NCBI RefSeq assembly: GCF_003056055.1
Contig: NZ_PYFP01000001.1
Span: 1,426,001 to 1,490,000 of the forward strand
DNA: 64,000 nucleotides
Origin: Glaciimonas sp. PCH181
GTDB lineage: Bacteria; Pseudomonadota; Gammaproteobacteria; Burkholderiales; Burkholderiaceae_D
Reading direction: 5' to 3'
Shown: piece after piece, positions 44,710 through 63,764 of the stretch
Position numbering within the stretch: the stretch's first letter is position 1
How the letters are laid out: each line of letters opens with the position of its first letter
Notes under the pieces: generated by a model
The model's database searches: none
Seen by the model: the letters and a program-made list of their open reading frames with translations, nothing else
What the model was told of the DNA's origin: nothing
Position numbers and translations under genes: made by a program

Positions 44710-44729
44710 TAAGTCGTCATGGGGGCCGG

Positions 44730-45065: not shown

Positions 45066-45108
45066 GATTTGCATTTCAATACTTAGCGTCGACCAGAACT
45101 TTATTCCG

Positions 45109-46482
45109 TTAGACTTCTCGCTGGCGCAGATTCGCCACACTGCGCGTCGCCCTGGCATACAGCAGGCCACCTAAGGCAAATAGTGCACCGAATACATATA
45201 TTCCGATGCTCATGCTGCCCGTGTGCGTGTTCAACCATCCGATCGAGGCTGGGCTGACGACTGCACCGAGAAAGCCGATGGTCGCGACTGTCGCGATAGC
45301 GTTCGCGACGCCTGGACCGGGCAAGCAAGCCGGTACGCTGGCCCAGAATAGCGGAACGAACGAAATCAGTGCTGCCATAGCTACCGACAGCAACACGAGT
45401 GAAAGCACTAGCGAACTCGAGGCGAATGGCAGCAGGCAGAGTGCAGCGGCGCCGACCAACGCCGACGCAACAATGCTTTCGCGCAAACGCCGCGTGCGGT
45501 CGGTACGCGCGCCAATCGTGATCATCGCGACGAGTGAGACTACGCTGGGGACGGCGGAGTAGAGGCCGATCGTGGCGATGTCGGTCGCGCCGAGCGAGCG
45601 AATGATGGTCGGCATCCAGAATTGGATCACCGTGATAGCGGCCGTGAGCGAAAAATATACGGCCATCAGCGCATAAAGGAGAGGATTACGGAGGACCTGT
45701 GCGAACGTCTGCCCCTCGCTAGCCGGTGCCCCGGCTTCGAGCGAAGCAGCGATCATGGCCTTTTCGTTGGTTGACAGCCAGTCGGCACTTTCGGGCGACT
45801 CATCGAGCAGCATCGGAACCAGCAGGCCGAGAACGATGCATGGCAGACCTTCGAGCGGGAACATCCACTGCCAGCCGCCCAACCCCCCTACGCCGTCCAT
45901 GAACTTGAGGATCGCTCCGGATAACGGATAAGCAAAAATCCCAGATATCACGAGTCCCGACGAGAACAGCGCAAACGCCTTGGCGCGGCGCTGCAGCGGA
46001 AACCAGCTCGACAAGTAGTAGACGACGATCGGATAGAATCCCGCCTCGAACACGCCCAGCAGAAAGCGCAGCGCATAAAACGAGATTGGGGTGCGGACAA
46101 ACATCGTGAGTGACGAGACGCAACCCCAGCCAATTGTCAATAACATGATCGTCTTAAGTGCGCCGAGCCGCTTCATCACGAAAGTGTTAGGCAATACGAA
46201 CAGCGCATACGACACGAAGAAGATGCCCACGCCCATACCATAAACGGCATCGGTGAAACCAAGTGCGGATTTCATCTGGAGCTGCGCGATGCCCACGTTG
46301 ACGCGGTCAATGCTAGACATCAGGTAAATGATAAATAACAACGGGATCAGACGGCGAGTGATCTTTTTGAACGTTTTATCGGCATCGAGAAACTGCGCGG
46401 CGCTCGTGGGGCTTTCCTCGGGATATTTCGCTAGCGAATCCATAGTTGTCTCTAGCTGATTGTTTTTGATAGTCTGTCTCAT
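45109..46482 (-). CDS. MFS transporter, phthalate permease-like, copy 2
   Basis: A 457-residue paralogue of the 43301 protein, with the same signature (LIPLLFIIYLMSSIDRVNVG). Substitutions cluster in membrane segments: FFVSYALFVLPNTFVMKRLG in place of FFLSYALFELPNIFVMKRLG, and SLTAAITVIQFWMPTIIRSL in place of SFATVIAIIHFWMPAIIRSL. Loss of a Glu and a His in helices could change substrate range. It lies 55 bases downstream of the intact nitroreductase, so it is the likely operon member. Confidence 0.9.
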   Translation of the reverse strand: MRQTIKNNQLETTMDSLAKYPEESPTSAAQFLDADKTFKKITRRLIPLLFIIYLMSSIDRVNVGIAQLQMKSALGFTDAVYGMGVGIFFVSYALFVLPNTFVMKRLGALKTIMLLTIGWGCVSSLTMFVRTPISFYALRFLLGVFEAGFYPIVVYYLSSWFPLQRRAKAFALFSSGLVISGIFAYPLSGAILKFMDGVGGLGGWQWMFPLEGLPCIVLGLLVPMLLDESPESADWLSTNEKAMIAASLEAGAPASEGQTFAQVLRNPLLYALMAVYFSLTAAITVIQFWMPTIIRSLGATDIATIGLYSAVPSVVSLVAMITIGARTDRTRRLRESIVASALVGAAALCLLPFASSSLVLSLVLLSVAMAALISFVPLFWASVPACLPGPGVANAIATVATIGFLGAVVSPASIGWLNTHTGSMSIGIYVFGALFALGGLLYARATRSVANLRQREV

Positions 46483-46537
46483 AGTTGTCTCCGGCTGATT
46501 GTTTTTGATAGTCTGTATAAGTCGTCATGGGGGCCGG

Positions 46538-47263
46538 TCAGACCCAGCGTGTGAAACTCTCCACCGTCTCTCGCGGCGTCTTATAGGTGTTCACCGGCGC
46601 GGACTCGTCTGCATAGCCCAATGACATGCCGCAAACCAGCATTTCATCGGAACCCGCGCCGATGAACGGCATGACAATCTTCGCGTAGTTGTTCCACGCC
46701 GCCTGGGGACAGGTGTGGAGACCGAGGGTGCGCGCCGCCAGCATCACGGTCTGCAGGAACATGCCGTAATCGATCAGGGAGCCGCGGCCCATGACGCGGT
46801 CGATGGTGAACATGAGGCCCACCGGCGCGTCAAAAAAGCGGTAATTTCGCTGTGCCTGCGCGTGCATCTTGTCCTTCTCGCCTTTTCCGATTCCGAGAAG
46901 ACCGTACAGGGTCCAGCCGTTGTGACGTCGCCGGTCGATGTAAGGCGAGACCCACTCCGCGGGGTAGTAGCCGTCCACCTCCCCGTATTCGGCGGCCAGT
47001 GAGGGATCCGCATGGGTCGCATCGTGCGCAGCACACACTTTCGCGACGAGTGCATCACGACGATCGCCCTGCAGCACATACACCTTCCACGGCTGGGTGT
47101 TCGTGCTGGACGCCGCGCAACTCGCGATCCGCAGAATCTCGTCGACTTGCTGGCGCGCGACCAGCTTGTCGTGCGAGAACGCACGACACGAGAAGCGGCT
47201 CTCGATGGCCGACACCACGCTCGCCGAATCCCGCACGACTGTCTTGACTTGGGACATGGTCAT
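46538..47263 (-). CDS. Nitroreductase-family flavoprotein (intact copy)
   Basis: A 241-residue FMN-dependent NAD(P)H oxidoreductase. The N-terminal VSAIESRFSCRAF holds the FMN phosphate-binding Arg/Ser residues, ASCAASSTNTQPWKVYVL the S-x-x-N-x-Q-P-W motif, SLIDYGMFLQTVMLAARTLG the dimer core, and GAGSDEMLVCGMSLGYAD the C-terminal flavin contact. It reduces nitroaromatics or quinones, or performs a related hydride transfer, and in a catabolic cluster could saturate an activated ring or enone. Two further broken copies lie at 44730 and 54128. Confidence 0.9.
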   Translation of the reverse strand: MTMSQVKTVVRDSASVVSAIESRFSCRAFSHDKLVARQQVDEILRIASCAASSTNTQPWKVYVLQGDRRDALVAKVCAAHDATHADPSLAAEYGEVDGYYPAEWVSPYIDRRRHNGWTLYGLLGIGKGEKDKMHAQAQRNYRFFDAPVGLMFTIDRVMGRGSLIDYGMFLQTVMLAARTLGLHTCPQAAWNNYAKIVMPFIGAGSDEMLVCGMSLGYADESAPVNTYKTPRETVESFTRWV

Positions 47264-49817: not shown

Positions 49818-49845
49818 ATTCTATCACTTGCTGGTCAGTTATCAA
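49818..49845 (-). promoter_or_regulatory. Promoter with TetR-type operator core (site A)
   Basis: On the minus strand: TTGATA (-35), a 16-base spacer containing TGACCAGCAAGT, then TAGAAT (-10). It lies about 57 bases before the enoyl-CoA hydratase start. Core and spacing match sites B (51863) and C (63737). Confidence 0.7.
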
Positions 49846-50249
49846 GGTTTTTTACGCCAGTTTGGTACCTTTATAGGACCGGCCTGTTGGGCCAGCATCA
49901 GGTGCTAGTTGAGTATATTTTTGAGCAGGGATCATCTAGCGGTGCCCTTCAGCAGGATTTCGGCAGGATGTGCGCCCACTTTGTAGCCAAACCTTAATTT
50001 TGAAGGCGAAGGCGAACGTGAACAGGTTAGCTTCTGGCTAGGTTAATGCAGAGGCATCGGCTTCGTGATGAGGGCATGACCAAAACCTCTAACCATCTCG
50101 AAAATTACTACCAAGACGTTCGCTCGTTCTGGTCACCCTGCATCGATTCCAGCAAGACTTTAATTGCTAAATTAACTCTAGGGCCTGCCCTTGTGTTTTG
50201 GGCGAGGCAGTGAATATACTGTTTCTATTACGAGATCGTTTAGCCGAGA
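49846..50249. other. Non-coding gap
   Basis: About 400 bases between the hydratase promoter and the end of the porin gene. Short rightward frames here lack ribosome sites and resemblance to known proteins. I see no RNA gene or repeat. Confidence 0.4.
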
Positions 50250-51485
50250 TCAGAACGTGTGATCGATCCCGGCATTAAACACCTTGTCTGTGCCGCCGCG
50301 GGAATCAGGGGTGGCGATACTCGCCGCGCCATCGTTTGCAATCCGAGCGAAAGAAGTATAAAGAGTTGTGCGTTTTGAAAGAGAATAAGTGTATCCAAGA
50401 GCGATTTGAGTGGTGTCTGCGTTTGTAAGCGCTTTATTTTTTTGCTTGATATAAGACGCCAATAGTTTGTGTCGACCGAATGGCACGCTCACCCCGACTA
50501 AGAAATCACGCGTCTCCAGAGCGGCGACCGGATCGTCATTCTTGTTGGACTGATAGAGACCAGACAGCCGAGCGATCCCAAAGTTATATGCCGCTCCAAT
50601 TCCAACATTCTTTGTATTGACGACTGGCGCTGCCATCGCAGCTGGCGTTGTAGCCGTCGCAGGAGAATTATTAAAATTGTTGTAAAGCAAATTCGTACTG
50701 AACGGCCCATTTACGTATCCCACCTGCAGTCCGATATTGCGACCCTGTGAGATGCTACCGACAACTTCACCTAAGCTGTAAGAAATTTCGCCACTGAAAC
50801 CGCCCAGATTGGCCGGCGTACCGTACAAGATTGTGTTGCTTAACCGTTTTCCTGCGCCGAGCGAGATTACGCGATTGTAGTAGCCTTCTAGCGTACCAAG
50901 GAAGGGATCGTACTGATAGCCTCCAGTGAAAAGAGGATTGTATTGACGGCCGAGTTTTAGTACACCCAGATTACCCTGGAGTCCGACGAATGCTTGGCGA
51001 CCGAATCCGATACCACTTCCGTCAAATGCGCCCGTATCGGAACCAAAGCCCATTTCTGCGGTAAAAATTGCAGCTAAGCCTCCACCTAGATCTTCGCTAC
51101 CTTTAAATCCAAGACGGGAACCAGCCAAGCTTGCTGCCGCGCCTTCCATCGTAGTGACTGATCCCGCAGGATTGCCACCGCGATCATGCGCAACATACGT
51201 ATCAACCACACCGTAAACCGTTACCGAAGTCTGTGCATATACATTGGAATACAAAGAAGTCAGCGCAACGGCAGCCAGAGCAGCGGTAAGGAGCCTGTTC
51301 GACGAATAGCCAGATTCCTTTCGGCGCGACGTTGATCCCCTACACTGATCGCAGGCCGAAAAAAGGGACTTTGCAATAGATACCCTGTTAATTCGATTAG
51401 AAGTCACCGCGCACTTTGAAGCGTGGACACAACTACGCGGGTCATGAGGCAATTTTTTTAGTGCTGCAACAAGCGAGGATTCCAT
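50250..51485 (-). CDS. Gram-negative porin with atypical N-terminal extension
   Basis: A Porin_4 outer-membrane protein: QTSVTVYGVVDTYVAHDRGG begins the mature part, then RLGFKGSEDLGGGLAAIFTA, GFGRQAFVGLQGNLGVLKLG, and the last strand VFNAGIDHTF ending in Phe. The signal-peptide core LLTAALAAVALTSLYSNVYA is present, but no start codon lies at its beginning. The only start with a ribosome site (GGAGACAACCC) is ATG 51485, which adds about 64 residues (ESSLVAALKKLPHDPRSCVH and onward, cysteine-rich and basic). The native start was probably lost by a rearrangement, so export may be impaired. Confidence 0.8.
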   Translation of the reverse strand: MESSLVAALKKLPHDPRSCVHASKCAVTSNRINRVSIAKSLFSACDQCRGSTSRRKESGYSSNRLLTAALAAVALTSLYSNVYAQTSVTVYGVVDTYVAHDRGGNPAGSVTTMEGAAASLAGSRLGFKGSEDLGGGLAAIFTAEMGFGSDTGAFDGSGIGFGRQAFVGLQGNLGVLKLGRQYNPLFTGGYQYDPFLGTLEGYYNRVISLGAGKRLSNTILYGTPANLGGFSGEISYSLGEVVGSISQGRNIGLQVGYVNGPFSTNLLYNNFNNSPATATTPAAMAAPVVNTKNVGIGAAYNFGIARLSGLYQSNKNDDPVAALETRDFLVGVSVPFGRHKLLASYIKQKNKALTNADTTQIALGYTYSLSKRTTLYTSFARIANDGAASIATPDSRGGTDKVFNAGIDHTF

Positions 51486-51862
51486 GGGTTGTCTCCGTAA
51501 TGGATATTTTTGTTTTGAAAGAAAAAGTAAGGTCGAATCAATGCTCATCGACTGATGTGAAGCCACGGATCAGAGTCACGAAAAATTGCGATTGGCCCTA
51601 AACCATGCCCTTTGGCATTGAGACCCAGAAGCTATCAACATGCCGCGGCTAAGCGAAGTACGACGTCCAATATGTGGATTGTTTTTCTAGCTCGTCCGAC
51701 AAAATTCTGGCTCGGATAGTGTTCTGCCGAGTCTGGTCGTCTATGAAAACCATAAACGCGATTATTCGACCAAGGCATCAAGAGAAGTGAAAAAATTTCT
51801 TCTGCTCCGTATTAGCTTAAGAAAGCCGCCTTACAAACTTGTTGGTTGACCCGCAAAAATAC
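51486..51862. other. Divergent intergenic region, porin to thiolase
   Basis: It contains the porin leader (with GGAGACAACCC) and leads into the thiolase promoter. No coding frame or RNA gene is recognised. Confidence 0.4.
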
Positions 51863-51890
51863 TTGACATCCGACCAGCAAGTGATAAGCT
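51863..51890 (+). promoter_or_regulatory. Promoter with TetR-type operator core (site B)
   Basis: TTGACA (-35), 16-base spacer containing CGACCAGCAAGT, then TAAGCT (a weak -10). It is 77 bases before the thiolase start. Core and spacing match sites A and C. Confidence 0.7.
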
Positions 51891-51966
51891 TACTCTCGTT
51901 AATCGGCGCTTATGCTAGTTAAGCGCCATACATAACGCGTTAATTTAACTAAAACTTGGAGAGACT

Positions 51967-53145
51967 ATGACTATTCGCGTCGCTATCGCTGGCGTTGGAA
52001 TGACCCCTTTTGGAAAATTTATCGACCGTTCGGTGAGAACATCTGCAGAAGAAGCCGTACGAAATGCGCTGGCAGATGCCGGCATCAATGCGGAGCGCGT
52101 CGACCGGGTTTATTTTGGCAATGCGGCTTCCGGCTTGATCACCGGTCAGGAGATGGTTAGGGCGCAAGCCGCGCTCAGATTCACCGGTTTGCTCGGCAAG
52201 CCAATGCTTAGCGTCGAAAACGCCTGCGCGACCGGAAGCACGGCGTTTCACTTGGCTTGGCAAGCCGTTGCCAGTGGCCAGGCAGACGTTGCCATTGCGA
52301 TCGGTGCCGAAAAACTAACTCATGTCGACAAAGCGGTGTCATTTGGCGCCTACGGTGGAGCCGTGGATAAGGAAGATATATTGCCTGCGCACATCGGATC
52401 GGGCACCGGTTCCATTTTTATGGACATCTATGCAGAGCGCACACGGCGCTATATGGCCGCGACTGGAACAACGCCGGCAGACTTCGCACGTATAACCGTT
52501 AAGAGCCGGCACGCTGGATCCATGAATCCGTATGCGCAGTTCCGGAAGGAGACTACGGTAGAGGAAGTGTTGGCCAGCCGCATGATCAGTGACCCACTGA
52601 CGCTTCCGATGTGTTCGTCAATCGGCGACGGCGCAGCTGCAATCGTTCTTTGCTCAAGCACCGTTGCCGCGCAACTGACTGGTTGCAGGCCTGTGTGGGT
52701 GGCAAGCTCAGTGCTTCTTTCGGGTCTGGCTGACTCGACGAAGGAAAGCGCTTCGGTTCGAGCAGCGCAAGCGGCTTATGAAGCGGCGTCGATCGGGCCA
52801 GACGAAGTTCACGTCGCAGAGGTTCATGATGCATCAGCGCCTGGAGAACTGATTAATTATGAGGTCGTGCAATTCTGTAAGCCTGGACAAGCTGTGGAAC
52901 TGCTGCGTAGCGGAGCCACCGAAATTGGGGGAAGGATCTCCGTGAATCCGAGCGGCGGCCTGTTAAGCCGGGGTCACCCAATCGGCGCAACTGGTACCGC
53001 CCAACTCGTGGAGTTGGTCCAACAGCTCCGCGGCGAATCTGGCGAACGTCAGCGGCCATCAGCGAAAGTCGCTCTGGCCCAAAACTCGGGCGGACAAGTA
53101 GGCGGCGAATCGGCGGCGGCAGTTGTTTCTATTCTGGTCGTATAA
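51967..53145 (+). CDS. Thiolase-family protein (acetyl-CoA acetyltransferase-like)
   Basis: A 392-residue thiolase. AIAGVGMTPFGKFIDRSVRT at the start, the nucleophile Cys in LSVENACATGSTAFHLAWQA, a glycine-rich IGDGAAAIVLCS region, VAEVHDASAPGELINYEVVQ in place of the usual N-E-A-F-A motif, and GGLLSRGHPIGATGTAQLVE with the catalytic His. The H-D motif points to the SCP-x/non-specific lipid-transfer thiolase branch, which acts on bulky or branched acyl-CoAs. It is followed 52 bases later by the SDR. Confidence 0.9.
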   Translation: MTIRVAIAGVGMTPFGKFIDRSVRTSAEEAVRNALADAGINAERVDRVYFGNAASGLITGQEMVRAQAALRFTGLLGKPMLSVENACATGSTAFHLAWQAVASGQADVAIAIGAEKLTHVDKAVSFGAYGGAVDKEDILPAHIGSGTGSIFMDIYAERTRRYMAATGTTPADFARITVKSRHAGSMNPYAQFRKETTVEEVLASRMISDPLTLPMCSSIGDGAAAIVLCSSTVAAQLTGCRPVWVASSVLLSGLADSTKESASVRAAQAAYEAASIGPDEVHVAEVHDASAPGELINYEVVQFCKPGQAVELLRSGATEIGGRISVNPSGGLLSRGHPIGATGTAQLVELVQQLRGESGERQRPSAKVALAQNSGGQVGGESAAAVVSILVV

Positions 53146-53197
53146 CACTCTTAAGCAAATAGTTCCCTTAGACCGATTGAAGTATCAGGAGGAAGAA

Positions 53198-54112
53198 ATG
53201 ACGCATTGGCTGAAAGACAAAGTAATAATTGTGACCGGCTCTGGTGCTGGCGTTGGCAAAGAAATAGCGCTTGAAGCGGCGCGCCAAGGTGCACGAGTGG
53301 TTGTGAATGACCTAGGCGTAAGTATGGATGGTGCCGGGGGTAGCGCAGGACCTGCGCAGCAGACTGTAGACCAAATTTGTGCTGCTGGTGGTGAAGCTAT
53401 CGCCAATACCGATAGCGTTGCAGATTGGAGCGCAGCCCAACGCATCGTCCAGCAGGCACTTGATGTATATGGACGAGTCGACGGACTGGTCAACAACGCA
53501 GGCAACCTCCGCGATGTGATTTTCCACAAGATGCAAGAAGAGGACTTTGATGCGGTTGTAAAGGTGCATCTAAAGGGCTGCTTCAACATGGCACGTGCTG
53601 TTGCGCCACATTTCAAGGGTCAGGAGACCGGCGCCATCGTGCACATGACGTCGACATCAGGGCTAATTGGCAATGTCGGCCAAGCTAACTACGCGGCGGC
53701 GAAGATGGGTATTATTGGCCTCTCAAAGTCGATTGCGCTCGACATGGAGCGTTTTGGTGTGCGATCAAATTGCATTGCACCTTTCGCATTTACCCGCATG
53801 GTAAGCTCGATTCCGACCGACACTCCGGAAGGGCTAGCGCGCACACAGGTCAATCAAAGGATGGAAGTTGCCAAGATTGCCCCGTTCACATGCGCATTGC
53901 TAACTGATCGGGCCCGTGATGTGACAGGCCAGATATTCGGTGTTCGGAATAACGAAATCTATCTGTTCTCGCAGCCTCGTCCAATCCGCACTGCACATAG
54001 GGGAGACGGCTGGACCGTCGATACCTGCCTCGAAGTGGCGCTGCCAATGCTGAAGCCGTCCTTTTTCCCGCTCGACAAGTCGCGCGACGTCTTCACCTGG
54101 GACCCGGTCTGA
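53198..54112 (+). CDS. SDR-family dehydrogenase (3-hydroxyacyl-CoA dehydrogenase, MFE-2-like)
   Basis: The ATG at 53198 has AGGAGGAAGAA before it; an upstream frame overlapping the thiolase is ignored. The 304-residue product starts THWLKDKVIIVTGSGAGVGK with TGxxxGxG, has VNDLGVSMDGAGGSAGPAQQ (as in the 17-beta-hydroxysteroid/MFE-2 group), LVNNAGNLRD, the catalytic Ser in HMTSTSGLIGNVGQANYAAA, and YAAAKMG carrying Y-x-x-x-K. It likely oxidises a 3-hydroxyacyl-CoA made by the hydratase for cleavage by the thiolase. Confidence 0.9.
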   Translation: MTHWLKDKVIIVTGSGAGVGKEIALEAARQGARVVVNDLGVSMDGAGGSAGPAQQTVDQICAAGGEAIANTDSVADWSAAQRIVQQALDVYGRVDGLVNNAGNLRDVIFHKMQEEDFDAVVKVHLKGCFNMARAVAPHFKGQETGAIVHMTSTSGLIGNVGQANYAAAKMGIIGLSKSIALDMERFGVRSNCIAPFAFTRMVSSIPTDTPEGLARTQVNQRMEVAKIAPFTCALLTDRARDVTGQIFGVRNNEIYLFSQPRPIRTAHRGDGWTVDTCLEVALPMLKPSFFPLDKSRDVFTWDPV

Positions 54113-54127
54113 GGCCGCACAGGCCCA

Positions 54128-54374
54128 GGCAGGTCGCTGATCGATTACGGCATGTTCCTGCAAAACCTCATGCTCGCAGCTCGGGCACTGGGCCTGCACA
54201 CGTACCCGCAAGCGGCATGGAATAACTACGCCAAGATCGTCGGCCCATTCATCGGCGCGGGAGCCGACGAGATGCTGGTCTGCGGCATGTCTTGGCTACG
54301 CGGTCGAAACCGCGCTTGTGAACACCTACAGCACGCCGCGGGCAAAGCCAGAGAGTTTCACGCGCTGGGTCTGA
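54128..54374 (+). pseudogene. Third nitroreductase copy, C-terminal fragment
   Basis: GRSLIDYGMFLQNLMLAARA, LGLHTYPQAAWNNYAKIVGP and FIGAGADEMLVCGMS align with the intact enzyme at 46538. One base change of frame at 54293 (TCTTGGCTACGC) moves the rest (VNTYSTPRAKPESFTRWV) into another frame. It starts abruptly 15 bases after the SDR stop; the first 150 codons are absent. Confidence 0.85.
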
Positions 54375-54435
54375 CCGAGTTGCCCGTTTTTTAGCGATCA
54401 CACCGAAGCCATCCACAACACACAAAGGAACTAAC

Positions 54436-55572
54436 ATGGACTTTAAGTTTTCAGAGGACTCACTCGCCCTGCAGGCGTCCACCCGGGAAGTAGTCAACGA
54501 CCTCCTCAAGCATGAGCCGCACTTTCACGAGACCAACGTGGTGCCGCAAGAGGTGGACGCGACGCTGCGGACGATGGGGTACTACGGGCTGGCGATCCCT
54601 GAAGAATTCGGTGGAACCAATGTCGACAAGGTCAGTTCGGCGCTGATCCAACTAGAACTCGCGCGCATGCCTCCCCAGTTCTGGCCCTCGATTCGTCAAG
54701 CCTTGGGGCCGATCCCCCAATTGCTCCTCCTGCACGGTACCCCGAAGCAAAAGGACAATTGGCTGCCGCGGATCGCGGCCGGCGCGACGGTCTGCTTCGC
54801 ACTCACCGAGCCCGATGCCGGCTCGGACGTGGCAGCGATGAGAACCACCGCCGTAAAAATGGGCGACCGATGGGTGCTGAACGGATCCAAGACCTACATC
54901 TCGAATGCCGAGCGAGGCGATGTTTTCCTGGTGTTTGCCAAGACCGACAAGAGCAAAGGGCGAGACGGCGTGTCGGCCTTTCTCGTGGAGCCGCAAACTC
55001 CCGGATTCAGCATGAGCAAGCCCATTCGCACGATGGGCTTCATGACCAATGGCGTTTACGGGCTCACGTTCGATAACTGCGAAATCCCTGCGGAAAATCT
55101 GCTTGGCGAAGAGAACCGCGGCTTCTACTACGCGGTCTCGGGGTTGAATGAAGCTCGCATCAATGTCGGCTGCCAAGCCCTCGGAGGCAGCCAGATTGCC
55201 TTCGAGCACGCGCTCCAGTATTCCAAGGATCGCGTGACCTTTGGCCAACCGCTGTCAAGCCACCAAGTCCTGCAACACATGCTGGCGGATATGGCCATGG
55301 AGCAGCATGCTGCGCGAATGCTGTTGTTAGAAGCCGCATGGAGCCTGGAGAATGGTGCGGACGTGCGCTTGAAGTCCTCCTATGCCAAGGTGTTCTGTAC
55401 GGAGGTCGCCAATCGCATTGCGGACAAGGCATTGCAAATCTTCGGAGGCGCCGGCTATATCAAGGGCATGGTGGTTGAACGCGTGTACCGCGAGTTGAGG
55501 GTCATGCGGATCTTCGAGGGTGCGAACGAAATCCAACGCAACATGATTGCGAAGCAGTTGCTGAAGGAATAG
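54436..55572 (+). CDS. Acyl-CoA dehydrogenase
   Basis: A 378-residue FAD enzyme after AAAGGAACTAAC. Motifs: DFKFSEDSLALQASTREVVN, then MGYYGLAIPEEFGGTNVDKV, CFALTEPDAGSDVAAMRTTA (FAD/substrate loop), RIFEGANEIQRNMIAKQLL (with the catalytic Glu position in FEGANE), and GGAGYIKGMVVERVYREL. It introduces the alpha-beta double bond in an acyl-CoA and passes electrons to ETF, which is encoded about 0.9 kb downstream. A dead IS6-family element separates them. Confidence 0.93.
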   Translation: MDFKFSEDSLALQASTREVVNDLLKHEPHFHETNVVPQEVDATLRTMGYYGLAIPEEFGGTNVDKVSSALIQLELARMPPQFWPSIRQALGPIPQLLLLHGTPKQKDNWLPRIAAGATVCFALTEPDAGSDVAAMRTTAVKMGDRWVLNGSKTYISNAERGDVFLVFAKTDKSKGRDGVSAFLVEPQTPGFSMSKPIRTMGFMTNGVYGLTFDNCEIPAENLLGEENRGFYYAVSGLNEARINVGCQALGGSQIAFEHALQYSKDRVTFGQPLSSHQVLQHMLADMAMEQHAARMLLLEAAWSLENGADVRLKSSYAKVFCTEVANRIADKALQIFGGAGYIKGMVVERVYRELRVMRIFEGANEIQRNMIAKQLLKE

Positions 55573-55635
55573 TTCTTATAACGGACGAAAGCAGCACTTC
55601 GAATCTTGCGGAGTGCTTGCCCCAGATGTTTTTAC

Positions 55636-56459
55636 GGTTCTGTCGCGTTGATCAAAGTCATCGAGTCGCTCAGGTAGACTGCTGTCTTTGAAAAAAGGGC
55701 GAACCGACATGCTCAAAGCCAAAGGGATGCGATTTCCCATCGACGTGATTCTGGTCTGCATCCGTTAGTACGCAGCCTACCCATTGAGTTACCGTCACCT
55801 GGAAGAAGTGATGGAAGAACGCGGCGTGGTTGTCGATCACTCATCGATCAATCGCTGGGCGATCCGGTTTCTGCCGTTACTTGAAAAGGCTTTCCACAAG
55901 CACAAGCGTCCGGTTGGCGGAAGCTGGCGAATGGACGAGACCTATATAAAAGTCAAAGGCGTCTGGAAGTATCTCTATCGGGCCGTGGACAAGGAAGGCA
56001 ACACGGTCGATTTTCTATTGACGGCCAAGCGGGACAAGTCGGCGGCGAAACGTTTTTTCAACAAAGCCATGCAAGCTCATGGCGTTCCTGAAAAAGTCAC
56101 GATGGATAAAAGCGGCGCCAACAAGGCGGCGATTGATGAGATCAATGCCGGCATGGACATTCCGATGGTCGTTCGGCAGATCAAATACCTCACCAATGTC
56201 GTCGAACAGGACCATCGGGCCGTCAAGCGCGTGACCAAGCCGATGCTCAACTTCAAATCATTTCGGTCCGCCAAACACATCTTAGCTTGCATTGAACTCA
56301 TGCACATGATCCGTAAAAGCCGGCTCATGATGGAAGGCACCGATGAGATGACTTTTGCAGACCAATTTTATGCATTAGCGGGAAAAATCCATCCAGTTTG
56401 AAGGCCGGTGCACCGGCCCAGCTAAAAATCCGACTTGTCCTTGCTAACGCAACAGAACC
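55636..56459. mobile_element. IS6-family insertion sequence, 824 bp, inactive
   Basis: Terminal inverted repeats GGTTCTGTCGCGTT (55636-55649) and the complement of AACGCAACAGAACC (56446-56459) match at 13 of 14 positions. Length and gene content fit the IS6/IS26 family. The 8-bp flanks (GTTTTTAC and AGATCACG) are not duplicated, as expected after a cointegrate-type rearrangement. It lies between the acyl-CoA dehydrogenase and etfB. Confidence 0.85.
55709..56401 (+). pseudogene. IS6-family transposase with in-frame stop
   Basis: Reads LKAKGMRFPIDVILVCIR, then TAG (55766-55768), then YAAYPLSYRHLEEVMEERGV. In intact relatives the stop position is Trp (TGG). The DDE core is otherwise kept: WRMDETYIKVKGVWKYLYRA, VTMDKSGANKAAIDEINAG, NVVEQDHRAVKRVTKPML. 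Translation could restart at 55799 or later, but this would lack the N-terminal domain. Confidence 0.88.
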
Positions 56460-56511
56460 AGATCACGTGCCGATTGTATTAAGAATCACTATTGAATGAA
56501 AAGGGAAACAG

Positions 56512-57261
56512 ATGAAAATATTAGTTCCAGTCAAGCGTGTAGTCGACTACAACGTGAAAGTACGCGTCAAATCCGATGGCATAGGTGTGGATATTGCCAA
56601 CGTCAAAATGTCGATGAATCCGTTTGATGAAATTGCGATGGAAGAAGCCACGCGTCTAAAAGAAGGCGGCAAGGTCACCGAAGTGATCGCGATTTCCTGC
56701 GGTGTCACCCAATGCCAGGAAACGCTGCGCACCGCGATGGCGATCGGCGCCGACCGCGCCATCCTGGTCGAGTCCGATGTCGAGCTGCAACCGCTGGCGG
56801 TGGCCAAACTGTTGAAGGCGATTGCGGATAAGGAGCAACCGCAGCTGATCATCCTCGGCAAGCAGGCGATCGACGACGATTGCAACCAGACCGGCCAGAT
56901 GCTGGCCGCCTTGCTGGACTGGCCGCAAGCGACCTTTGCCTCAAAGGTCATGCTGGAAGAGGGCAAAGTGCTGGTCACGCGCGAAGTCGACGGCGGCCTG
57001 GAAACCCTGGCTTTGACGCTGCCGGCCATCATCACCACCGACTTGCGCCTGAACGAGCCGCGTTACGTGACGCTGCCGAACATCATGAAAGCCAAGAAGA
57101 AACCCCTGGATGTGTGCAAGCCGGCCGATCTGGGCGTCGATGTCAGTCCCCGGCTGAAGACGCTGAAAGTGGTAGAACCTGCCAAACGAAGCGCCGGGAT
57201 CAAGGTGCCGGACGTGGCTACGCTGGTAGCCAAATTGCGTAACGAAGCCAAGGTCATTTAA
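56512..57261 (+). CDS. etfB: Electron transfer flavoprotein beta subunit
   Basis: A 249-residue Etf[21 protein letters not shown], then [20 protein letters not shown] (family signature), [20 protein letters not shown] and [20 protein letters not shown] with [20 protein letters not shown]. It binds AMP and forms the heterodimer that accepts electrons from acyl-CoA dehydrogenases. AGGGAAACAG precedes the ATG. The IS6 element 52 bases upstream may have separated it from earlier promoters. Confidence 0.95.
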
Positions 57262-57345
57262 TCCGCGACCACTTTTACCACCGAACCGATGCAGCGGGCC
57301 GCCGCCTTTGCAGGCGACCGCAACACCTCATCATCAGGAGATACC

Positions 57346-58275
57346 ATGACCGCTCTCGTCATAGCTGAACACGATAACGCCACCTTAAAGGGCAGCACCC
57401 TCAACACCATCACCGCCGCCATCCAATGCGGCGGCGAGGTCCATGTAATGATCGCCGGCAAAGACTGTGGTGTGGCGGCCCAAGCCGCTGCGCAAGCCGC
57501 CGGCGTGACCAAAGTACTGGTCGCTGACGCGGCGTATTTTGCCGATGGCCTGGCCGAAAACGTCGCCGAACAAGTGCTGGCGCTGGCCGCCAACTACAGC
57601 CACATCCTGGCTCCGGCCACCGCCTACGGCAAGAATATCCTGCCGCGCGTCGCAGCCAAGTTGGATGTCGGCCAGATTTCCGAAATCGTCAAAGTCGACA
57701 GCCCAGATACCTTCGAGCGTCCGATCTATGCCGGCAACGCGATTGCCACCGTGCAATCGATCGATGCGATCAAAGTCATCACCGTCCGGACCACCGGTTT
57801 CGATGCGGCTGCAGGCGGTGGTTCGGCTGCGGTCGAGAACATCGGCGCGGCAGCAGATTTTGCCAAGTCGGCATTCGTCTCGCGTGCACTGGCCAAGTCG
57901 GACCGGCCAGAACTGACTGCGGCCAAAGTCATCGTCTCCGGCGGCCGCGGCCTGGGTTCGGCGGACAACTTCAAGATCCTGGAGCCATTGGCCGACAAGC
58001 TCGGCGCCGCAATGGGCGCGTCCCGTGCCGCGGTCGATGCCGGTTTCGTACCGAACGACTGGCAAATCGGCCAAACCGGCAAGATCGTCGCACCGCAGCT
58101 GTATATCGCGGTCGGCATTTCCGGCGCGATCCAGCATTTGGCCGGGATGAAGGATTCCAAGGTGATCGTCGCGATCAACAAGGATGAAGAGGCGCCGATC
58201 TTTGCGGTAGCGGACTACGGTATCGTCGGGGATTTGTTCGAAATCGTGCCGCAACTGGTGGATGAACTCGGATAA
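57346..58275 (+). CDS. etfA: Electron transfer flavoprotein alpha subunit
   Basis: A 309-residue EtfA. The ATG at 57346 is preceded by CAGGAGATACC; an earlier in-frame start lacks a site. The N-terminal part is [20 protein letters not shown]; the FAD domain has [20 protein letters not shown], the [20 protein letters not shown] motif, then [20 protein letters not shown] and [20 protein letters not shown]. It holds the redox FAD of ETF. It is 84 bases after etfB. Confidence 0.95.
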
Positions 58276-58378
58276 AACGTTTAGATATACAACGCCCCCC
58301 ACAAGAGTTTCGTCGCATATCCATCATTACAATAGAGACCTCAGGGTTTATCGACGTTTGATACAGCAAAGACTTTAA

Positions 58379-60049
58379 ATGACAAAAGACTTACTGGAAC
58401 AACACGGCCCGCGCGAAGCGATGGAATATGACATCGTCATCGTCGGCGGCGGCCCGGCCGGCTTGTCGGCAGCCATCAAACTTAAACAGTTGGCATGGGA
58501 AAAAGGTAATGGCGTGTCCGTCTGCGTACTGGAAAAAGGCGGCGAGCTTGGCGCGCACATCCTGTCCGGCGCGGTCATGGATCCGATCGCGATCAACGAG
58601 CTATTTCCAAACTGGAAAGAACTGGGTGCGCCATTGACGACTGAGGTCAGCGAAGACCGCTTCCTATTTTTGACAGAGAGAAAAGCCGTCAAAACACCGA
58701 ACTGGATGCTGCCCGCCTGCTTTCAGAACCACGGAAATTTCGTTATCTCGCTAGCCAATGTCGTGCGCTGGCTAGGCCCGCAAGCCGAGGCATTGGGCGT
58801 TGACATTTTCCCTGGTTTTGCCGCAGCTGAAGTGTTGTACAACGACGATGGTTCGGTTAAGGGCGTCGCGACCGGAAACATGGGCATCGACCGCCACGCT
58901 CAGCCGACAGCGGCGTTCCAGCTCGGCATGGAATTGCATGCCAAATACACACTTTTTGCCGAAGGCGCACGCGGCCATCTGGGCAAACAGTTGATAAGCA
59001 AGTTTGATCTCAATAAAGGCAAGGATCCGCAGACTTACGCTATCGGCATCAAGGAATTGTGGGAAATCGATCCGAAGATGCATCAACCCGGCCTAGTCGT
59101 CCACACAGCTGGCTGGCCTCTCGATACCAGCACCTATGGCGGTTCCTTTCTATATCATCTGGAGAACAATCAGGTGGCGGTCGGTTACGTGGAGGGACTC
59201 GCCTACGAAAACCCGTATCTGTCGCCGTATGAAGAATTTCAGCGCTACAAGACGCATCCTGAAATCCGACAATTCTTTGAAGGCGGCAAACGCATTTCGT
59301 ACGGCGCGCGCGCGATCACCGCTGGCGGCCTGCAATCGCTGCCTAAGCTGAGCTTCCCCGGTGGCGCGCTAATTGGCTGTGATGCCGGCTTTTTGAATGC
59401 CAGCCGCATTAAGGGCAGCCATGCCGCGATTAAGAGCGGCATGCTGGCCGCCGATGCGGCATTCGATGCCTTGAACGCGAATCGCCAATACGATGAATTG
59501 ACGGCGTATTCGCAAGCGTTTGAACGATCCTGGCTGCAGGATGAATTGCATCGGGCGCGCAATTTCAAACCGTGGATGAGCAAAGGGCTGGTCACCGGCA
59601 CGCTAATGGTGGGCATCGATCAAGTGTTGTTCCGCGGCAAGGCTCCATGGACCCTGCATCACACGCATGCCGACCACAAGTGCCTGAAGCCAGCCGCGAA
59701 CTACGCCCCGATTGTGTATCCGAAACCGGATGGCAAGCTGACCTTCGATCGTTTGTCTTCGGTATTTATCTCAAACACGAACCATGCGGAAGACCAACCG
59801 GTACATTTGACGTTGAAAGATGCGAGTGTGCCGATCAATCTCAACCTGGCGAAATATGCTGGCCCCGAGGCGAAGTACTGCCCCGCAGGCGTGTACGAGT
59901 TTGTAAAAACCGATGCCGGTGACGAGCGTTTGCAAATCAATGCGCAGAATTGCGTGCATTGCAAAACCTGTGACATCAAGGATTCGACCCAGAATATCGT
60001 GTGGATCACTCCAGAAGGTGGCGGCGGACCGAATTATTCGGCGATGTAG
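58379..60049 (+). CDS. Electron transfer flavoprotein-ubiquinone oxidoreductase
   Basis: A 556-residue ETF-QO. The FAD motif is YDIVIVGGGPAGLSAAIKLK; GAHILSGAVMDPIAINELFP is typical of the family; GAIIG-like GGALIGCDAGFLNASRIKGS lies near residue 330. The C-terminal 4Fe-4S site has Cys in AKYCPAGVYEF and in QNCVHCKTCDIKDSTQNIVW. It is a monotopic inner-membrane protein that moves electrons from ETF to ubiquinone. It follows etfA by 103 bases. Confidence 0.95.
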   Translation: MTKDLLEQHGPREAMEYDIVIVGGGPAGLSAAIKLKQLAWEKGNGVSVCVLEKGGELGAHILSGAVMDPIAINELFPNWKELGAPLTTEVSEDRFLFLTERKAVKTPNWMLPACFQNHGNFVISLANVVRWLGPQAEALGVDIFPGFAAAEVLYNDDGSVKGVATGNMGIDRHAQPTAAFQLGMELHAKYTLFAEGARGHLGKQLISKFDLNKGKDPQTYAIGIKELWEIDPKMHQPGLVVHTAGWPLDTSTYGGSFLYHLENNQVAVGYVEGLAYENPYLSPYEEFQRYKTHPEIRQFFEGGKRISYGARAITAGGLQSLPKLSFPGGALIGCDAGFLNASRIKGSHAAIKSGMLAADAAFDALNANRQYDELTAYSQAFERSWLQDELHRARNFKPWMSKGLVTGTLMVGIDQVLFRGKAPWTLHHTHADHKCLKPAANYAPIVYPKPDGKLTFDRLSSVFISNTNHAEDQPVHLTLKDASVPINLNLAKYAGPEAKYCPAGVYEFVKTDAGDERLQINAQNCVHCKTCDIKDSTQNIVWITPEGGGGPNYSAM

Positions 60050-60101
60050 ATCCTCAGTTCGAATCCACTATCCCTCAACGCACCCATGAATCAATAATGT
60101 A

Positions 60102-63100
60102 ATGATCACCGCACTTCATAACCCACGTCCCATCCGTAAACTTCTGGTCGCTAACCGCTCCGAAATCTGCATCCGCGTGATGCGGGCTGCTGCCGAACTC
60201 GGTATTCGGACGGTGGCGATTTATGCTGCAGAAGATCGTTTTGCCTTGCATCGGTTTAAGGCAGACGAGAGCTATCTGGTCGGAGAAGGCAAGAAACCGA
60301 TTGCGGCCTATCTGGATATTGACGACATCATTCGTATTGCTAAAGAAGCGAAAGTCGATGCGATTCATCCGGGCTATGGCTTCTTGTCCGAGAATCCTGA
60401 ATTTGCCGAGGCTTGCGCTAAAAATGGCATCGCCTTTATCGGCCCGTCGCCAACCGTGATGCGCACGCTGGGTAATAAAGTTGCGGCCCGTAATGCGGCT
60501 GTGGCGGCCGGTGTGCCGGTGATGCCAGCCACGGCTGCGTTGCCGCATGATATTGACGTGGCGCACAAAATGGCGGCGGAAGTCGGCTATCCGTTGATGC
60601 TGAAAGCCAGCTGGGGTGGCGGCGGTCGCGGGATGCGCGTGATCGAAAGCGCAGAGGAATTGCCGGGGCAGCTAGAAATGGCGCGGCGCGAGGCGCTGGC
60701 TGCTTTTGGCAACGATGAAATGTATCTGGAGAAACTGGTGCGGCGTGCGCGTCACGTTGAAGTCCAGATTCTGGGCGATAAGCACGGCAATCTGGTGCAT
60801 TTGTTTGAGCGCGATTGCTCGGTTCAACGGCGCAATCAAAAGGTCGTGGAACGCGCGCCCGCGCCGTATCTGGATGCGGCGACCCGCGCCGATCTCTGTG
60901 AATCTGCATTGCGTCTGGGTCGTGCGGTCAACTATACCCATGCCGGAACGGTCGAATTTTTGATGGATGCCGATACCGGCAAGTTCTATTTCATTGAAGT
61001 TAACCCACGGATTCAGGTAGAACACACCGTCACCGAACAAGTGACCGGCATCGATATCGTCAAGGCGCAAATCCGTATTACGCAAGGCGCGGTGATTGGT
61101 GATACCAGCGCCAGTGCCGAGCATTCTGCTGGCGTCCCGGCGCAAGCGGATATCCGCCTGAACGGTCATGCGCTGCAATGCCGCGTCACGACAGAAGATC
61201 CCGAAAACAATTTCACGCCCGATTATGGTCGTTTGACCGCGTATCGCAGCGCGTCCGGTTTCGGTATTCGTCTGGATGGCGGCACTGCTTATTCGGGCGC
61301 GGTGATTACGCCGTATTACGATTCGCTGCTGGTAAAAGTGACGGCGCATGCGCCTAGTTCAGAAGAAGCAATTGCGCGAATGGATCGTGCGCTGCGCGAA
61401 TTCCGCATCCGTGGCGTGTCGACGAATCTGCTGTTTCTTGAGAACGTCATCAATCATCCGCAATTCAAATCCGGCGAATGTATTACGCGCTTTATCGATA
61501 CGACGCCTGCGCTATTCCAGTTTGCCAAACGACGTGATCGTGCGACGCGTATCTTGCGTTTCATCGGTGAGGTAGCGGTTAACGGTAATCCGGAAATGAA
61601 GGGACGCGTGCAGCCGGTGGGCATTGTGCCGACGCCGCTGATTCCCAAGACCGACAGACTCGCGCCTATTGCGCCCGGCAGCCGTGACAAATTGATCGCC
61701 CTCGGCCCGGACAAGTTTGCCCAATGGATGAAAGAGCAGCCGCAAGTCTTGCTGACCGACACCTCCATGCGCGATGCGCATCAATCGTTGTTTGCTACTC
61801 GCATGCGGACCGCTGACATGCTAGCGATTGCGCCTGCATATGCGCGGACGTTGCCGAATTTATTTTCGATGGAATGTTGGGGCGGTGCGACATTTGACGT
61901 GGCAATGCGCTTTCTGAAAGAAGATCCGTGGGAACGTCTGACGCAATTGCGTGAGCGCGTGCCAAATATTCTGTTTCAGATGTTGTTGCGCGGCTCTAAC
62001 GCGGTTGGCTATACCAACTATGCCGACAATGTGGTGAAACATTTTGTCGAACAGGCAGCAAAGGGTGGTATCGATTTGTTCCGTGTATTTGACTCGCTGA
62101 ATTGGGTTGAGAACATGCGCGTGGCGATTGACGCGGTGCGCGAATCCGGCGCGTTATGTGAAGGCGCGATCTGTTACAGCGGCGATTTGCTGGATGCCAA
62201 ACGGGTCAAATACGACCTGAAGTATTACGTCACGATGGCTAAGGATTTAGAGCGTGCCGGGGTCAATATTCTGGCGATCAAGGACATGGCCGGGATTTGC
62301 AAACCGCAGGCAGCACGGTTGCTAGTGAAAACGTTAAAAGAAGAAGTCGGCCTGCCGATTCATTTCCACACGCATGACACTAGCGGCATCAGCGCCGCCA
62401 GTGTGCTGGCGGCTATCGAAGCCGGTTGCGATGCGGTGGATGGCGCGATGGATGCGATGAGCGGCCTGACTTCTCAGCCGAATCTGGGCGCGATTGCAGC
62501 AGCCTTGCGCGGCACTGAACGCGATCCGCAACTCGACTCGACCGCGATGTTTGGCATTTCACAATACTGGGAAGGCGTGCGGCGTGCGTATGCGCCGTTT
62601 GAGGCGGATATTCGGTCCGGCACCTCAGATGTGTATCGTCATGAAATGCCGGGTGGTCAATACACCAACTTGCGCGAACAGGCGCGGGCGATGGGATTGG
62701 CGCACCGCTGGACCGAGGTTTCGCAAGCCTATTCGGACGTGAATCAGCTGTTCGGTGACATTGTGAAAGTGACGCCGACGTCCAAGGTAGTGGGCGATAT
62801 GGCGTTGTTCATGGTCGCCAACGATCTGACCCCGGCGGATGTGAGTAATCCAGATAAAGAAGTCGCTTTTCCGGATTCTGTGATTTCCTTATTCAAGGGC
62901 GAGTTGGGCTTTCCGGCGGATGGTTTTCCGAAGCCGCTAGAGCAGAAAATACTCAAAGGCGGCCAGCCGATGGTTGGGCGTCCCGGCGCACATTTGCCGC
63001 CAGTCGATTTGGTGTTAGTTCGCGCTGAAGCTGAAAAAGCCGTTGAGCGCAGCATCACCGAGCAAGAACTGTCGTCGTATCTGATGTATCCGAAAGTCTT

Positions 63101-63587
63101 TAAAGAGTACGCAGAGCATCGCCGTCATTACGGCAACGTCAGCGTGCTGTCGACTCCGGTGTTTTTCTACGGGATGCAAGACGGACAAGAAACTTCGATT
63201 GATATCGATCAGGGCAAAACGCTAGTCGTACGTCTGCAAGGGCAGACCGAAGCGACCGATGATGGTCAGACCAAGCTGTTCTTTGAACTGAACGGTCAGC
63301 CGCGCCTGATCCGTATCGACCGTGCCGGTGCAGTCAAGACCGCGACCCATGTGCGTGCCGAAGAAGGCAATCCGAAGCATGTCGGTGCGCCGATGCCGGG
63401 CATGGTGGTGACGGTGGCGGTGAAGGCAGGACAAAAAGTGGAAAAAGGCGATCCGCTGGTCTCAATTGAAGCCATGAAAATGGAAACCATGATCCGCGCC
63501 GAGCGCAATGGCACGGTCGGCCATACCCATGTCAAACCGGGCAGCGTGATCAGTGCCAAGGACTTGCTGATGGAGTTTGTCGATTAA
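60102..63587 (+). CDS. pyc: Pyruvate carboxylase
   Basis: A single-chain 1,161-residue pyruvate carboxylase with domains in the usual order. Biotin carboxylase (residues 1 to about 470): KLLVANRSEICIRVMRAAAE, KASWGGGGRGMRVIESAEEL, VEFLMDADTGKFYFIEVNPR with VEHTVTE. Carboxyltransferase (from about 540): LLTDTSMRDAHQSLFATRMR, the MECWGGATFDVAMRFLKEDP motif, and HFHTHDTSGIS metal site. Biotinyl domain at the end: IEAMKMETM, Lys near residue 1125. It makes oxaloacetate for the citrate cycle. It lies beside the ETF genes, so the operon links acyl-CoA oxidation to anaplerosis. Confidence 0.95.
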   Translation: MITALHNPRPIRKLLVANRSEICIRVMRAAAELGIRTVAIYAAEDRFALHRFKADESYLVGEGKKPIAAYLDIDDIIRIAKEAKVDAIHPGYGFLSENPEFAEACAKNGIAFIGPSPTVMRTLGNKVAARNAAVAAGVPVMPATAALPHDIDVAHKMAAEVGYPLMLKASWGGGGRGMRVIESAEELPGQLEMARREALAAFGNDEMYLEKLVRRARHVEVQILGDKHGNLVHLFERDCSVQRRNQKVVERAPAPYLDAATRADLCESALRLGRAVNYTHAGTVEFLMDADTGKFYFIEVNPRIQVEHTVTEQVTGIDIVKAQIRITQGAVIGDTSASAEHSAGVPAQADIRLNGHALQCRVTTEDPENNFTPDYGRLTAYRSASGFGIRLDGGTAYSGAVITPYYDSLLVKVTAHAPSSEEAIARMDRALREFRIRGVSTNLLFLENVINHPQFKSGECITRFIDTTPALFQFAKRRDRATRILRFIGEVAVNGNPEMKGRVQPVGIVPTPLIPKTDRLAPIAPGSRDKLIALGPDKFAQWMKEQPQVLLTDTSMRDAHQSLFATRMRTADMLAIAPAYARTLPNLFSMECWGGATFDVAMRFLKEDPWERLTQLRERVPNILFQMLLRGSNAVGYTNYADNVVKHFVEQAAKGGIDLFRVFDSLNWVENMRVAIDAVRESGALCEGAICYSGDLLDAKRVKYDLKYYVTMAKDLERAGVNILAIKDMAGICKPQAARLLVKTLKEEVGLPIHFHTHDTSGISAASVLAAIEAGCDAVDGAMDAMSGLTSQPNLGAIAAALRGTERDPQLDSTAMFGISQYWEGVRRAYAPFEADIRSGTSDVYRHEMPGGQYTNLREQARAMGLAHRWTEVSQAYSDVNQLFGDIVKVTPTSKVVGDMALFMVANDLTPADVSNPDKEVAFPDSVISLFKGELGFPADGFPKPLEQKILKGGQPMVGRPGAHLPPVDLVLVRAEAEKAVERSITEQELSSYLMYPKVFKEYAEHRRHYGNVSVLSTPVFFYGMQDGQETSIDIDQGKTLVVRLQGQTEATDDGQTKLFFELNGQPRLIRIDRAGAVKTATHVRAEEGNPKHVGAPMPGMVVTVAVKAGQKVEKGDPLVSIEAMKMETMIRAERNGTVGHTHVKPGSVISAKDLLMEFVD

Positions 63588-63736
63588 TGCCGATCAGCCC
63601 GAACTAGCGATGCTCTTCAAGTAATGGGTTTAACGACCAATAGAGCCAAATAGTTAGTAATTTTGGATAAACCGCAGTGCCGTTGCAATTTAGGACGTCT
63701 TTATAAGAACTAACTAATCTATCAATATTAAGAAAA

Positions 63737-63764
63737 TTAACATTCGACCAGCAAGTAGTAGAAT
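63737..63764 (+). promoter_or_regulatory. Promoter with TetR-type operator core (site C)
   Basis: TTAACA (-35), a 16-base spacer containing CGACCAGCAAGT, then TAGAAT (-10). It lies 48 bases before the TetR-family gene at the window end, so autoregulation is likely. Core and spacing equal sites A and B. Confidence 0.7.

What the first reader, a model, noticed from the sequence alone, without database searches (positions are those of the whole stretch)
49818..63764. Three promoters across 14 kb share an ACCAGCAAGT core between -35 and -10 with identical spacing
Site A (49818-49845, minus, enoyl-CoA hydratase), site B (51863-51890, plus, thiolase) and site C (63737-63764, plus, TetR-like gene) each show a -35 hexamer (TTGATA, TTGACA, TTAACA), a 16-base spacer with GACCAGCAAGT at the same register, then a -10 (TAGAAT, TAAGCT, TAGAAT). 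A repressor bound there would block all three promoters. The TetR-type gene at 63812, itself behind site C, is the natural candidate. The regulon would be acyl-CoA oxidation sensed by an acyl-CoA. I recognise no published operator with this sequence.
Basis: partly seen in the sequence, partly recalled or inferred. Interest (0 to 1): 0.72.

Follow-up and report, generated by a model that had tools for sequence, protein, structure and literature searches.

The report
Repressor switch for acyl-CoA breakdown genes
A TetR-type repressor gene and the acid-degradation operons beside it carry the same DNA-binding site laid exactly over their promoters, and matching sites accompany relatives of this repressor in distant soil bacteria, so this looks like a portable, apparently undescribed but ordinary-style switch for a catabolic gene cluster.

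Summary
The three sites are real, in the stated register, and not chance. The shared ACCAGCAAGT is the right arm of a 22-bp imperfect palindrome (ideal ACTTGYTGGTCGACCARCAAGT). The "-35" lies in its degenerate left arm; the -10 starts 2 bp after it. Within 3 mismatches of the three-site pattern the 5.3-Mb genome holds only these three. The gene behind site C encodes a 260-aa TetR protein. Distant relatives (39-49% identity) have the palindrome near their gene in 29 of 35 loci outside the training set (permuted matrices: mean 0.09); in Pseudomonas genomes not seen before it is there in 7 of 7. The operator before the thiolase recurs before its Arthrobacter orthologue (81%). Best reading: an autoregulated TetR repressor of an acquired acyl-CoA (beta-oxidation-like) cluster. 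Binding, repression and inducer are untested. New member of a known kind.

The parts
49826..49847 (-). Operator A, CCTTGATAACTGACCAGCAAGT; -10 TAGAAT at 49823-49818; 64 nt before the ATG (49761) of the enoyl-CoA hydratase gene
   Evidence: (23.7 bits with a matrix without window sites)
51861..51882 (+). Operator B, ACTTGACATCCGACCAGCAAGT; -10 TAAGCT at 51885-51890; 84 nt before the thiolase ATG
   Evidence: (28.9 bits); an operator lies 88 nt before the Arthrobacter orthologue
51837..51858 (.). Fourth operator B', ACTTGTTGGTTGACCCGCAAAA, 2 bp upstream of B (24-bp register); perfect left arm, degenerate right arm
   Evidence: 22.0 bits on minus, 14.3 on plus. A 24-bp tandem also in Bradyrhizobium L022 2165/2189 (2165 weak, 11.4 bits) and 22-bp tandems in Arthrobacter L013 and L015 9797/9819
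63735..63756 (+). Operator C, AATTAACATTCGACCAGCAAGT; -10 TAGAAT at 63759-63764; 55 nt before the TetR ATG
   Evidence: 22.8 bits; operators also lie 34-36 nt before TetR genes in Caballeronia L018, P. podalyriae L019 and Arthrobacter L013-L015
63812..64000 (+). TetR-family regulator, start only; full gene L008:3812-4594 (G000:C1:1489812-1490594), 260 aa
48970..49761 (-). Enoyl-CoA hydratase/isomerase, first gene behind operator A
   Evidence: ECH_1 8.8e-62; 73-75% orthologues in Arthrobacter L013-L015 and Bradyrhizobium L022
47291..48490 (-). Family III (CaiB-type) CoA-transferase, probable operon A
   Evidence: CoA_transf_3 7.1e-118; 78-90% full-length orthologues in L013-L015, L021, L022
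46538..47263 (-). Nitroreductase-family protein, probable operon A
   Evidence: 2.1e-27
45109..46482 (-). MFS transporter, probable operon A (its tandem copy at 43301-44674 is the one scanned)
51967..53145 (+). Thiolase with similarity to 'lipid-transfer protein' models (SCP2 kind, label recalled), first gene behind operator B
   Evidence: no NCBIfam cut-off reached; 81% orthologue behind an operator in Arthrobacter
53123..54112 (+). SDR dehydrogenase (listed from a TTG start that overlaps the thiolase end)
54436..55572 (+). Acyl-CoA dehydrogenase
   Evidence: 93% (L021) and 78% (L022) orthologues in Bradyrhizobium, the latter 69 nt behind its own operator (L022 16439)
56512..60049 (+). EtfB, EtfA and ETF-quinone oxidoreductase; these names are from my reading of the sequences, no family scan was run on them
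   Evidence: used as queries
60102..63587 (+). Pyruvate carboxylase
   Evidence: NF009554, 1806.3 bits against cut-off 965

Best explanation
A TetR-family repressor encoded at 63812 (complete just past the window) binds as a dimer to a 22-bp palindrome placed over the core promoter, from the -35 to 2 bp before the -10. It occupies the promoters of three transcription units: enoyl-CoA hydratase/CoA-transferase/nitroreductase/MFS, thiolase/SDR/acyl-CoA dehydrogenase/ETF/pyruvate carboxylase, and its own gene. Binding would exclude RNA polymerase. At the thiolase promoter a second operator one 24-bp register upstream probably allows a second dimer and tighter control. An intermediate of the pathway, most likely a CoA thioester of a branched or alicyclic carboxylic acid, would release the repressor. 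The left arm is imperfect because it also has to serve as the -35 (TTGACA, TTGATA, TTAACA). Shown by computation: sites, palindrome, family of the protein, recurrence of the palindrome beside relatives of the regulator, conserved placement before orthologous genes. Inferred: binding, repression, dimer count, operon extents, inducer, substrate, and the reason for the imperfect left arm.
For: Only these three sites genome-wide within 3 mismatches of the three-site pattern. Four window sites found with a matrix trained without the window. Operator within -3000..+900 of the TetR start in 29 of 35 loci not used in training; 100 permuted matrices give a mean of 0.09 loci, maximum 3. In 7 of 7 Pseudomonas genomes with the regulator that had not been seen in the genome-contig scan, a site of 20-26 bits lies within the 1.5-kb flank; 1000 permuted matrices mean 0.025, maximum 1. 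Strict palindrome in 19 of 24 TetR-bearing genomes, reversed control 0 in all 24; 23 of 24 positions lie inside a fetched TetR locus, the last on the same contig before a thiolase. Operator, 2 bp, then TAGAAT in 7 of 31 sites listed, from the window, Paraburkholderia, Caballeronia and Arthrobacter; a TAnnnT within 6 bp in 19 of 31. AGYSRG, which by recalled TetR anatomy lies in the DNA-reading helix region, is invariant in 26 of 26 aligned proteins. It is the only close TetR of this kind in the genome (next 8.6e-10 against 2.1e-120). The four other same-genus genomes have neither the regulator (E 1e-35) nor the sites.
Against: No binding or expression data. 6 of the 35 loci show no site at the threshold (L029, L036, L040, L041, L045, L052; L041 and L045 just below at 13.8 and 13.7; L040 has one 3.3 kb upstream, outside the tested interval). 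The interval and the 14-bit threshold were set after I had seen. Many Pseudomonas loci are near-copies (three of the seven new ones share one site), so 35 and 7 overstate the independent number. The co-occurrence test in 249 Pseudomonas genomes (4 of 5 with the regulator against 5 of 244 without, p = 4e-6) is partly circular: three of those genomes had shaped the pattern, and without them p = 0.048. 12 of 31 sites show no TAnnnT -10 within 6 bp. The window's left arms are poor (C has ATTAAC) and B's -10 is weak. The structure model is moderate (mean pLDDT 74.3, residues 1-43 below 50).
Confidence: 0.85

Rival explanations
1. The sites are read by a different regulator (for example the IclR-like protein encoded at L008:9121-9972, name from my reading, or another TetR), and the 63812 protein merely sits behind one of them.
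For: The IclR-like gene lies 4.5 kb downstream of the TetR gene; three weaker TetR-profile hits exist in the genome.
Against: The palindrome recurs beside this TetR subfamily in several genera; the next TetR in the genome is very distant; operators of this type lie directly before the TetR gene in Caballeronia, Paraburkholderia and Arthrobacter.
Confidence: 0.06
2. The protein is an activator or dual regulator rather than a pure repressor, or the upstream operator B' activates the thiolase promoter.
For: B' lies directly upstream of the -35, a place compatible with activation; some TetR proteins activate (AtrA, passage in PMC3511530).
Against: Operators A, B and C cover the -35 and spacer, where a bound protein would block polymerase.
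Confidence: 0.07
3. Chance or a promoter copied by recombination, with no bound protein.
For: The three units are neighbours within 14 kb, so copying is conceivable.
Against: By eye the agreement ends with the operator and -10; the palindrome recurs in diverged form in other phyla.
Confidence: 0.02

Closest known systems
AtuR / RdmA (TetR repressors of acyclic terpene and DSF catabolism, Pseudomonas)
   Same: TetR repressor next to a catabolic cluster, operator close to the -10, two inverted repeats in one promoter (passages of PMC9973270)
   Different: Reported operators AGCAAGCGCTTGG and CCAAGCGCTTGCT, 40-42 bp apart: CAAG-N2-CTTG. Here CTTG-N12-CAAG, arms pointing the other way, tandem register 22 or 24 bp. 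The AtuR protein itself was not aligned here
PA3973 (P. aeruginosa TetR, controls acyl-CoA dehydrogenase and thioesterase genes)
   Same: TetR binding its own promoter, with an acyl-CoA dehydrogenase target (abstract and passages of PMC9736018)
   Different: Motif SAAGRNMTGAACG, palindrome TGAATCCGGATTCA
FadR of Bacillus / SaFadR / AibR (TetR-fold repressors; acyl-CoA release partly from entry titles, partly recalled)
   Same: Same fold by model comparison (3whb, 6en8, 5k7z among the hits, TM normalised to target 0.72-0.80)
   Different: 14-19% identity; operators differ (recalled, not compared by a call); ligand here unknown
FadP, LiuQ and PsrA regulons of proteobacteria
   Same: TetR-type regulators of fatty-acid or branched-chain acyl-CoA use (recalled; PMC5343134 seen only as a search listing)
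   Different: Motifs could not be compared: PMC2612455 is not held

Membership tests
TetR/AcrR family regulators | N-terminal TetR helix-turn-helix domain | tested here: met
   PF00440 6.7e-11, 42.2 bits against cut-off 24, residues 62-108
TetR/AcrR family regulators | All-helical TetR fold | tested here: met
   Nine helices, no strand of 3 or more residues; 478 PDB chains at E <= 0.001, the 50 listed are regulators, by title mostly TetR-family
TetR/AcrR family regulators | Palindromic operator at own or neighbouring promoter | tested here: met
   (sequence only, no binding shown)
TetR/AcrR family regulators | DNA binding relieved by a small ligand | not testable with these tools
   Needs bench work
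AtuR/RdmA | Operator AGCAAGCGCTTGG / CCAAGCGCTTGCT | tested here: not met
   By reading: the four window operators do not hold it
PA3973 | Motif SAAGRNMTGAACG | tested here: not met
   By reading: not in the four window operators
NCBIfam models for ScbR, MtrR, AcrR, BetI, FadR (Bacillus), PsrA and others | Score above the curated cut-off | tested here: not met
   13 of 13 listed models below cut-off; best 57.8 bits against 150 (ScbR); FadR 26.9 against 200; PsrA 24.7 against 300
FadP / LiuQ | Regulon motif | not tested
   Source paper not held

The most novel reading that the evidence does not exclude
A mobile regulatory module: a TetR subfamily whose promoter-embedded 22-bp operator has travelled together with its acyl-CoA catabolic genes between Actinobacteria (Arthrobacter), alpha-proteobacteria (Bradyrhizobium) and beta-proteobacteria (Paraburkholderia, Caballeronia and the window's host), keeping the operator-to-minus-10 register in many copies, with tandem operators that set graded repression, and controlling an as yet unnamed acid-degradation pathway sensed by one of its CoA intermediates.
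Probability: 0.5. Interest if true: 0.5.

Novelty: new member of a known kind. Interest (0 to 1): 0.42.

Why it matters
It gives an operator, a regulator and a testable regulon for a TetR subfamily, uncharacterised as far as my searches show, found in soil and plant-associated bacteria of two phyla, and an operator by which further members of the same catabolic pathway can be found. It also suggests how an operator arm and a -35 hexamer can share the same bases, and how such a switch can keep its register after moving between phyla.

Tried and rejected
Standalone 10-mer core: rejected, the unit is a 22-bp palindrome. PA3973 and AtuR/RdmA operators: compared by reading and different. Naphthenic-acid proteome paper PMC8289671: passages read, nothing bearing on this regulator. 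Plasmid collection: no match to the TetR protein at E 1e-30. Looser pattern CTTGN6GACCARCAAGT with 2 mismatches in the own genome gave 30 matches against 13 for the reversed control, so a looser pattern alone cannot call further regulon members. Pathway substrate: family scans of neighbours did not name one. IS ends around the IS6-like transposase: the only inverted repeat of 12 nt or more in 55400-56600 is a short palindrome inside it. Of the 249 Pseudomonas genomes, five have the strict palindrome but no regulator hit: six places, none with a window-cluster protein matched at E 1e-8 in the 3-kb locus; 5 of 6 overlap an open frame of more than 120 codons. Reversed-control matches in that search: 5 in 4 of 249 genomes.

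Literature seen: PMC9736018 abstract, outline and passages; PMC9973270, PMC3511530 and PMC8289671 passages; PMC5343134 and PMC9795900 search listings only; PMC2612455 nothing (not held).
Full report
Observation. The three sites are present at the given coordinates and register. Exact ACCAGCAAGT occurs three times in the window, and with up to one mismatch ten times against a shuffle mean of 3.0, 0 of 100 shuffles reaching ten. GACCAGCAAGT occurs 7 times in the 5.3-Mb genome, against 3 for the reversed control. The four copies elsewhere lack the -35-like hexamer at the register. The 24-nt form with up to three mismatches gives only these three sites (1 control match).

The regulator. The gene at 63812 runs past the window. 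Read in the genome it is 260 aa, with TetR_N at 6.7e-11 and TetR_C_6 at 3.6e-07, both above the Pfam cut-off. It reaches no cut-off of the 13 NCBIfam models listed. The AlphaFold model (mean pLDDT 74.3, residues 1-43 below 50) is all-helical, and its best PDB matches are by title mostly TetR-family proteins, including FadR and AibR structures. In the genome the next hit to the subfamily profile is 8.6e-10 against 2.1e-120.

What the site is. The protein search found 121 proteins and listed 120, the first being the window's own. The genome-contig scan returned 79 loci, of which I scanned L013-L058 and L068 for sites (47 of 79); the remaining 32 (L059-L067, L069-L091), mostly below 39% identity, were not scanned. 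Many promoters carry ACTTGYTGGTCGACCARCAAGT-like palindromes, for example GCTTGTTGGCCGACCAACAAGC in Pseudomonas putida L047 and ACTTGTTACTCGACCAACAAGT in Paraburkholderia L016. The window sites are this palindrome with a good right arm (ACCAGCAAGT) and a degenerate left arm (ACTTGacatc, CCTTGataac, AATTAacatt) that coincides with the -35. A matrix from 12 non-window sites finds in the window 51861 (28.9), 49826 (23.7), 63735 (22.8) and a fourth, 51837 (22.0 on minus, 14.3 on plus). The next place is at 11.0. The fourth stands 24 bp upstream of B. Bradyrhizobium L022 has a 24-bp tandem that shares the string TGACCCGCAAAA with the window (its upstream member is weak, 11.4 bits), and Arthrobacter L013 and L015 have 22-bp tandems.

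Tests outside the training set. In 35 loci not used for training (L023-L057, 39-49% identity), 29 have a site of 14 bits or more within -3000..+900 of the TetR start. 100 permuted matrices give a mean of 0.09 loci and a maximum of 3; elsewhere in the same loci there are 7 sites in 504,382 bp. The six without are L029, L036, L040, L041, L045 and L052. Threshold and interval were chosen, and several Pseudomonas loci are near-copies. The strict palindrome RCTTGYTKNNYRNHYARCAAGY, without mismatch, was sought in the 24 genomes behind 26 of the 79 loci: 19 of 24 have it, with 0 reversed-control matches in all 24. This pattern was drawn up after seeing the Pseudomonas sites, so one search tests specificity, not sensitivity. 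In 249 Pseudomonas genomes the palindrome is in 9 and the regulator (E 1e-30) in 5, with 4 shared; Fisher p = 4e-6. Three of the four shared genomes had shaped the pattern; without them p = 0.048. The fifth regulator genome has a near-palindrome ACTTATTGGCTGACCAGCAAGT at 25.5 bits beside the gene. A wider draw found the regulator in 12 of 398 Pseudomonas genomes. Seven of these 12 were not in the genome contigs set, and all 7 have a site of 20.1-25.5 bits in the 3.6-kb locus, next best place 8.1 or less; 1000 permuted matrices mean 0.025, maximum 1. Two of the seven had been looked at before, and three share one identical site. Within the family of the window's genome, 2 of 392 genomes have the regulator at E 1e-35, the window's own included. 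The four other genomes of its genus lack regulator and sites, which points to acquisition.

What it regulates. Behind A: enoyl-CoA hydratase, CaiB-type CoA-transferase, nitroreductase-family protein, MFS transporter. Behind B: thiolase, SDR, acyl-CoA dehydrogenase, ETF genes (named by reading), pyruvate carboxylase. Behind C: the regulator. In Arthrobacter ISL-65 an operator lies 88 nt before the orthologous thiolase (81%), another about 250 nt before a citrate-synthase-like gene followed by an SDR gene, and others near the TetR genes. In Bradyrhizobium operators lie 69 nt before the acyl-CoA dehydrogenase (78%), about 480 nt before the citrate-synthase-like/thiolase pair, and before ABC and TRAP transporter genes. 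In Caballeronia and P. podalyriae they lie 36 nt before TetR genes and also before hydratase genes. Operator, 2 bp, then TAGAAT is seen in 7 of 31 listed sites (window A and C, L016, L018 twice, L019, L105), and any TAnnnT within 6 bp in 19 of 31.

Mechanism. Covering the -35 and spacer implies exclusion of RNA polymerase, and an operator before the TetR gene implies autoregulation. These, the dimer count, and release by a CoA thioester are inferences from established TetR biology. The substrate is not identified; CoA-transferase, several acyl-CoA dehydrogenases and a lipid-transfer-like thiolase suggest a branched or alicyclic acid (inference from recalled pathways).

Known or new. AtuR/RdmA and PA3973 operators differ. 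Searches for the palindrome, its half, and combinations of terms found no paper with this operator; sequences printed in figures would be missed, and most subscription papers are not held. I file it as a new member of a known kind: an autoregulated TetR catabolic repressor with an operator I found nowhere described.

Noticed in passing
window 43258-46708: Tandem duplication: the MFS transporter unit 45066-46708 is repeated at 43258-44900 (96.4%), joined to a 165-bp piece of the nitroreductase gene (44902-45066 = 47077-47241, 98.8%).
   Followed up: partly
window 55784-56401: IS6-family transposase ORF (205 aa, profile matched from position 23) sits between the acyl-CoA dehydrogenase and EtfB genes, possibly interrupting operon B.
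   Followed up: partly
L008 4216-4872: Opposite the 3' end of the TetR gene an ORF holds a thiolase-like stretch (VGAARTAIGTFGG, by my reading) and then runs into unrelated sequence: probably a thiolase remnant. Arthrobacter L068 has a thiolase fragment at 11284-11493 behind an operator.
   Followed up: no
L008 4986-9972: A second acyl-CoA set (hydratase, two acyl-CoA dehydrogenases, citrate-synthase-like protein; only the last scanned) diverges from an IclR-like gene and has no operator of this type (best 9.9 bits outside site C), although its citrate-synthase-like orthologue (79%) follows one in Bradyrhizobium L022.
   Followed up: partly
L016 1871-2428 and 5625-6581, L018 7143-7700 and 10754-11710: A DUF2889 protein (L018 copy scanned) and a FabK-like protein (L016 copy scanned) recur in the related Paraburkholderia and Caballeronia clusters, judged by their first 40 residues.
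   Followed up: no
L058 9489-9510: A Mycolicibacterium relative (40%) has AACTTGTTGACCAACAAGTT nearby, a shorter-centred version of the palindrome.
   Followed up: no
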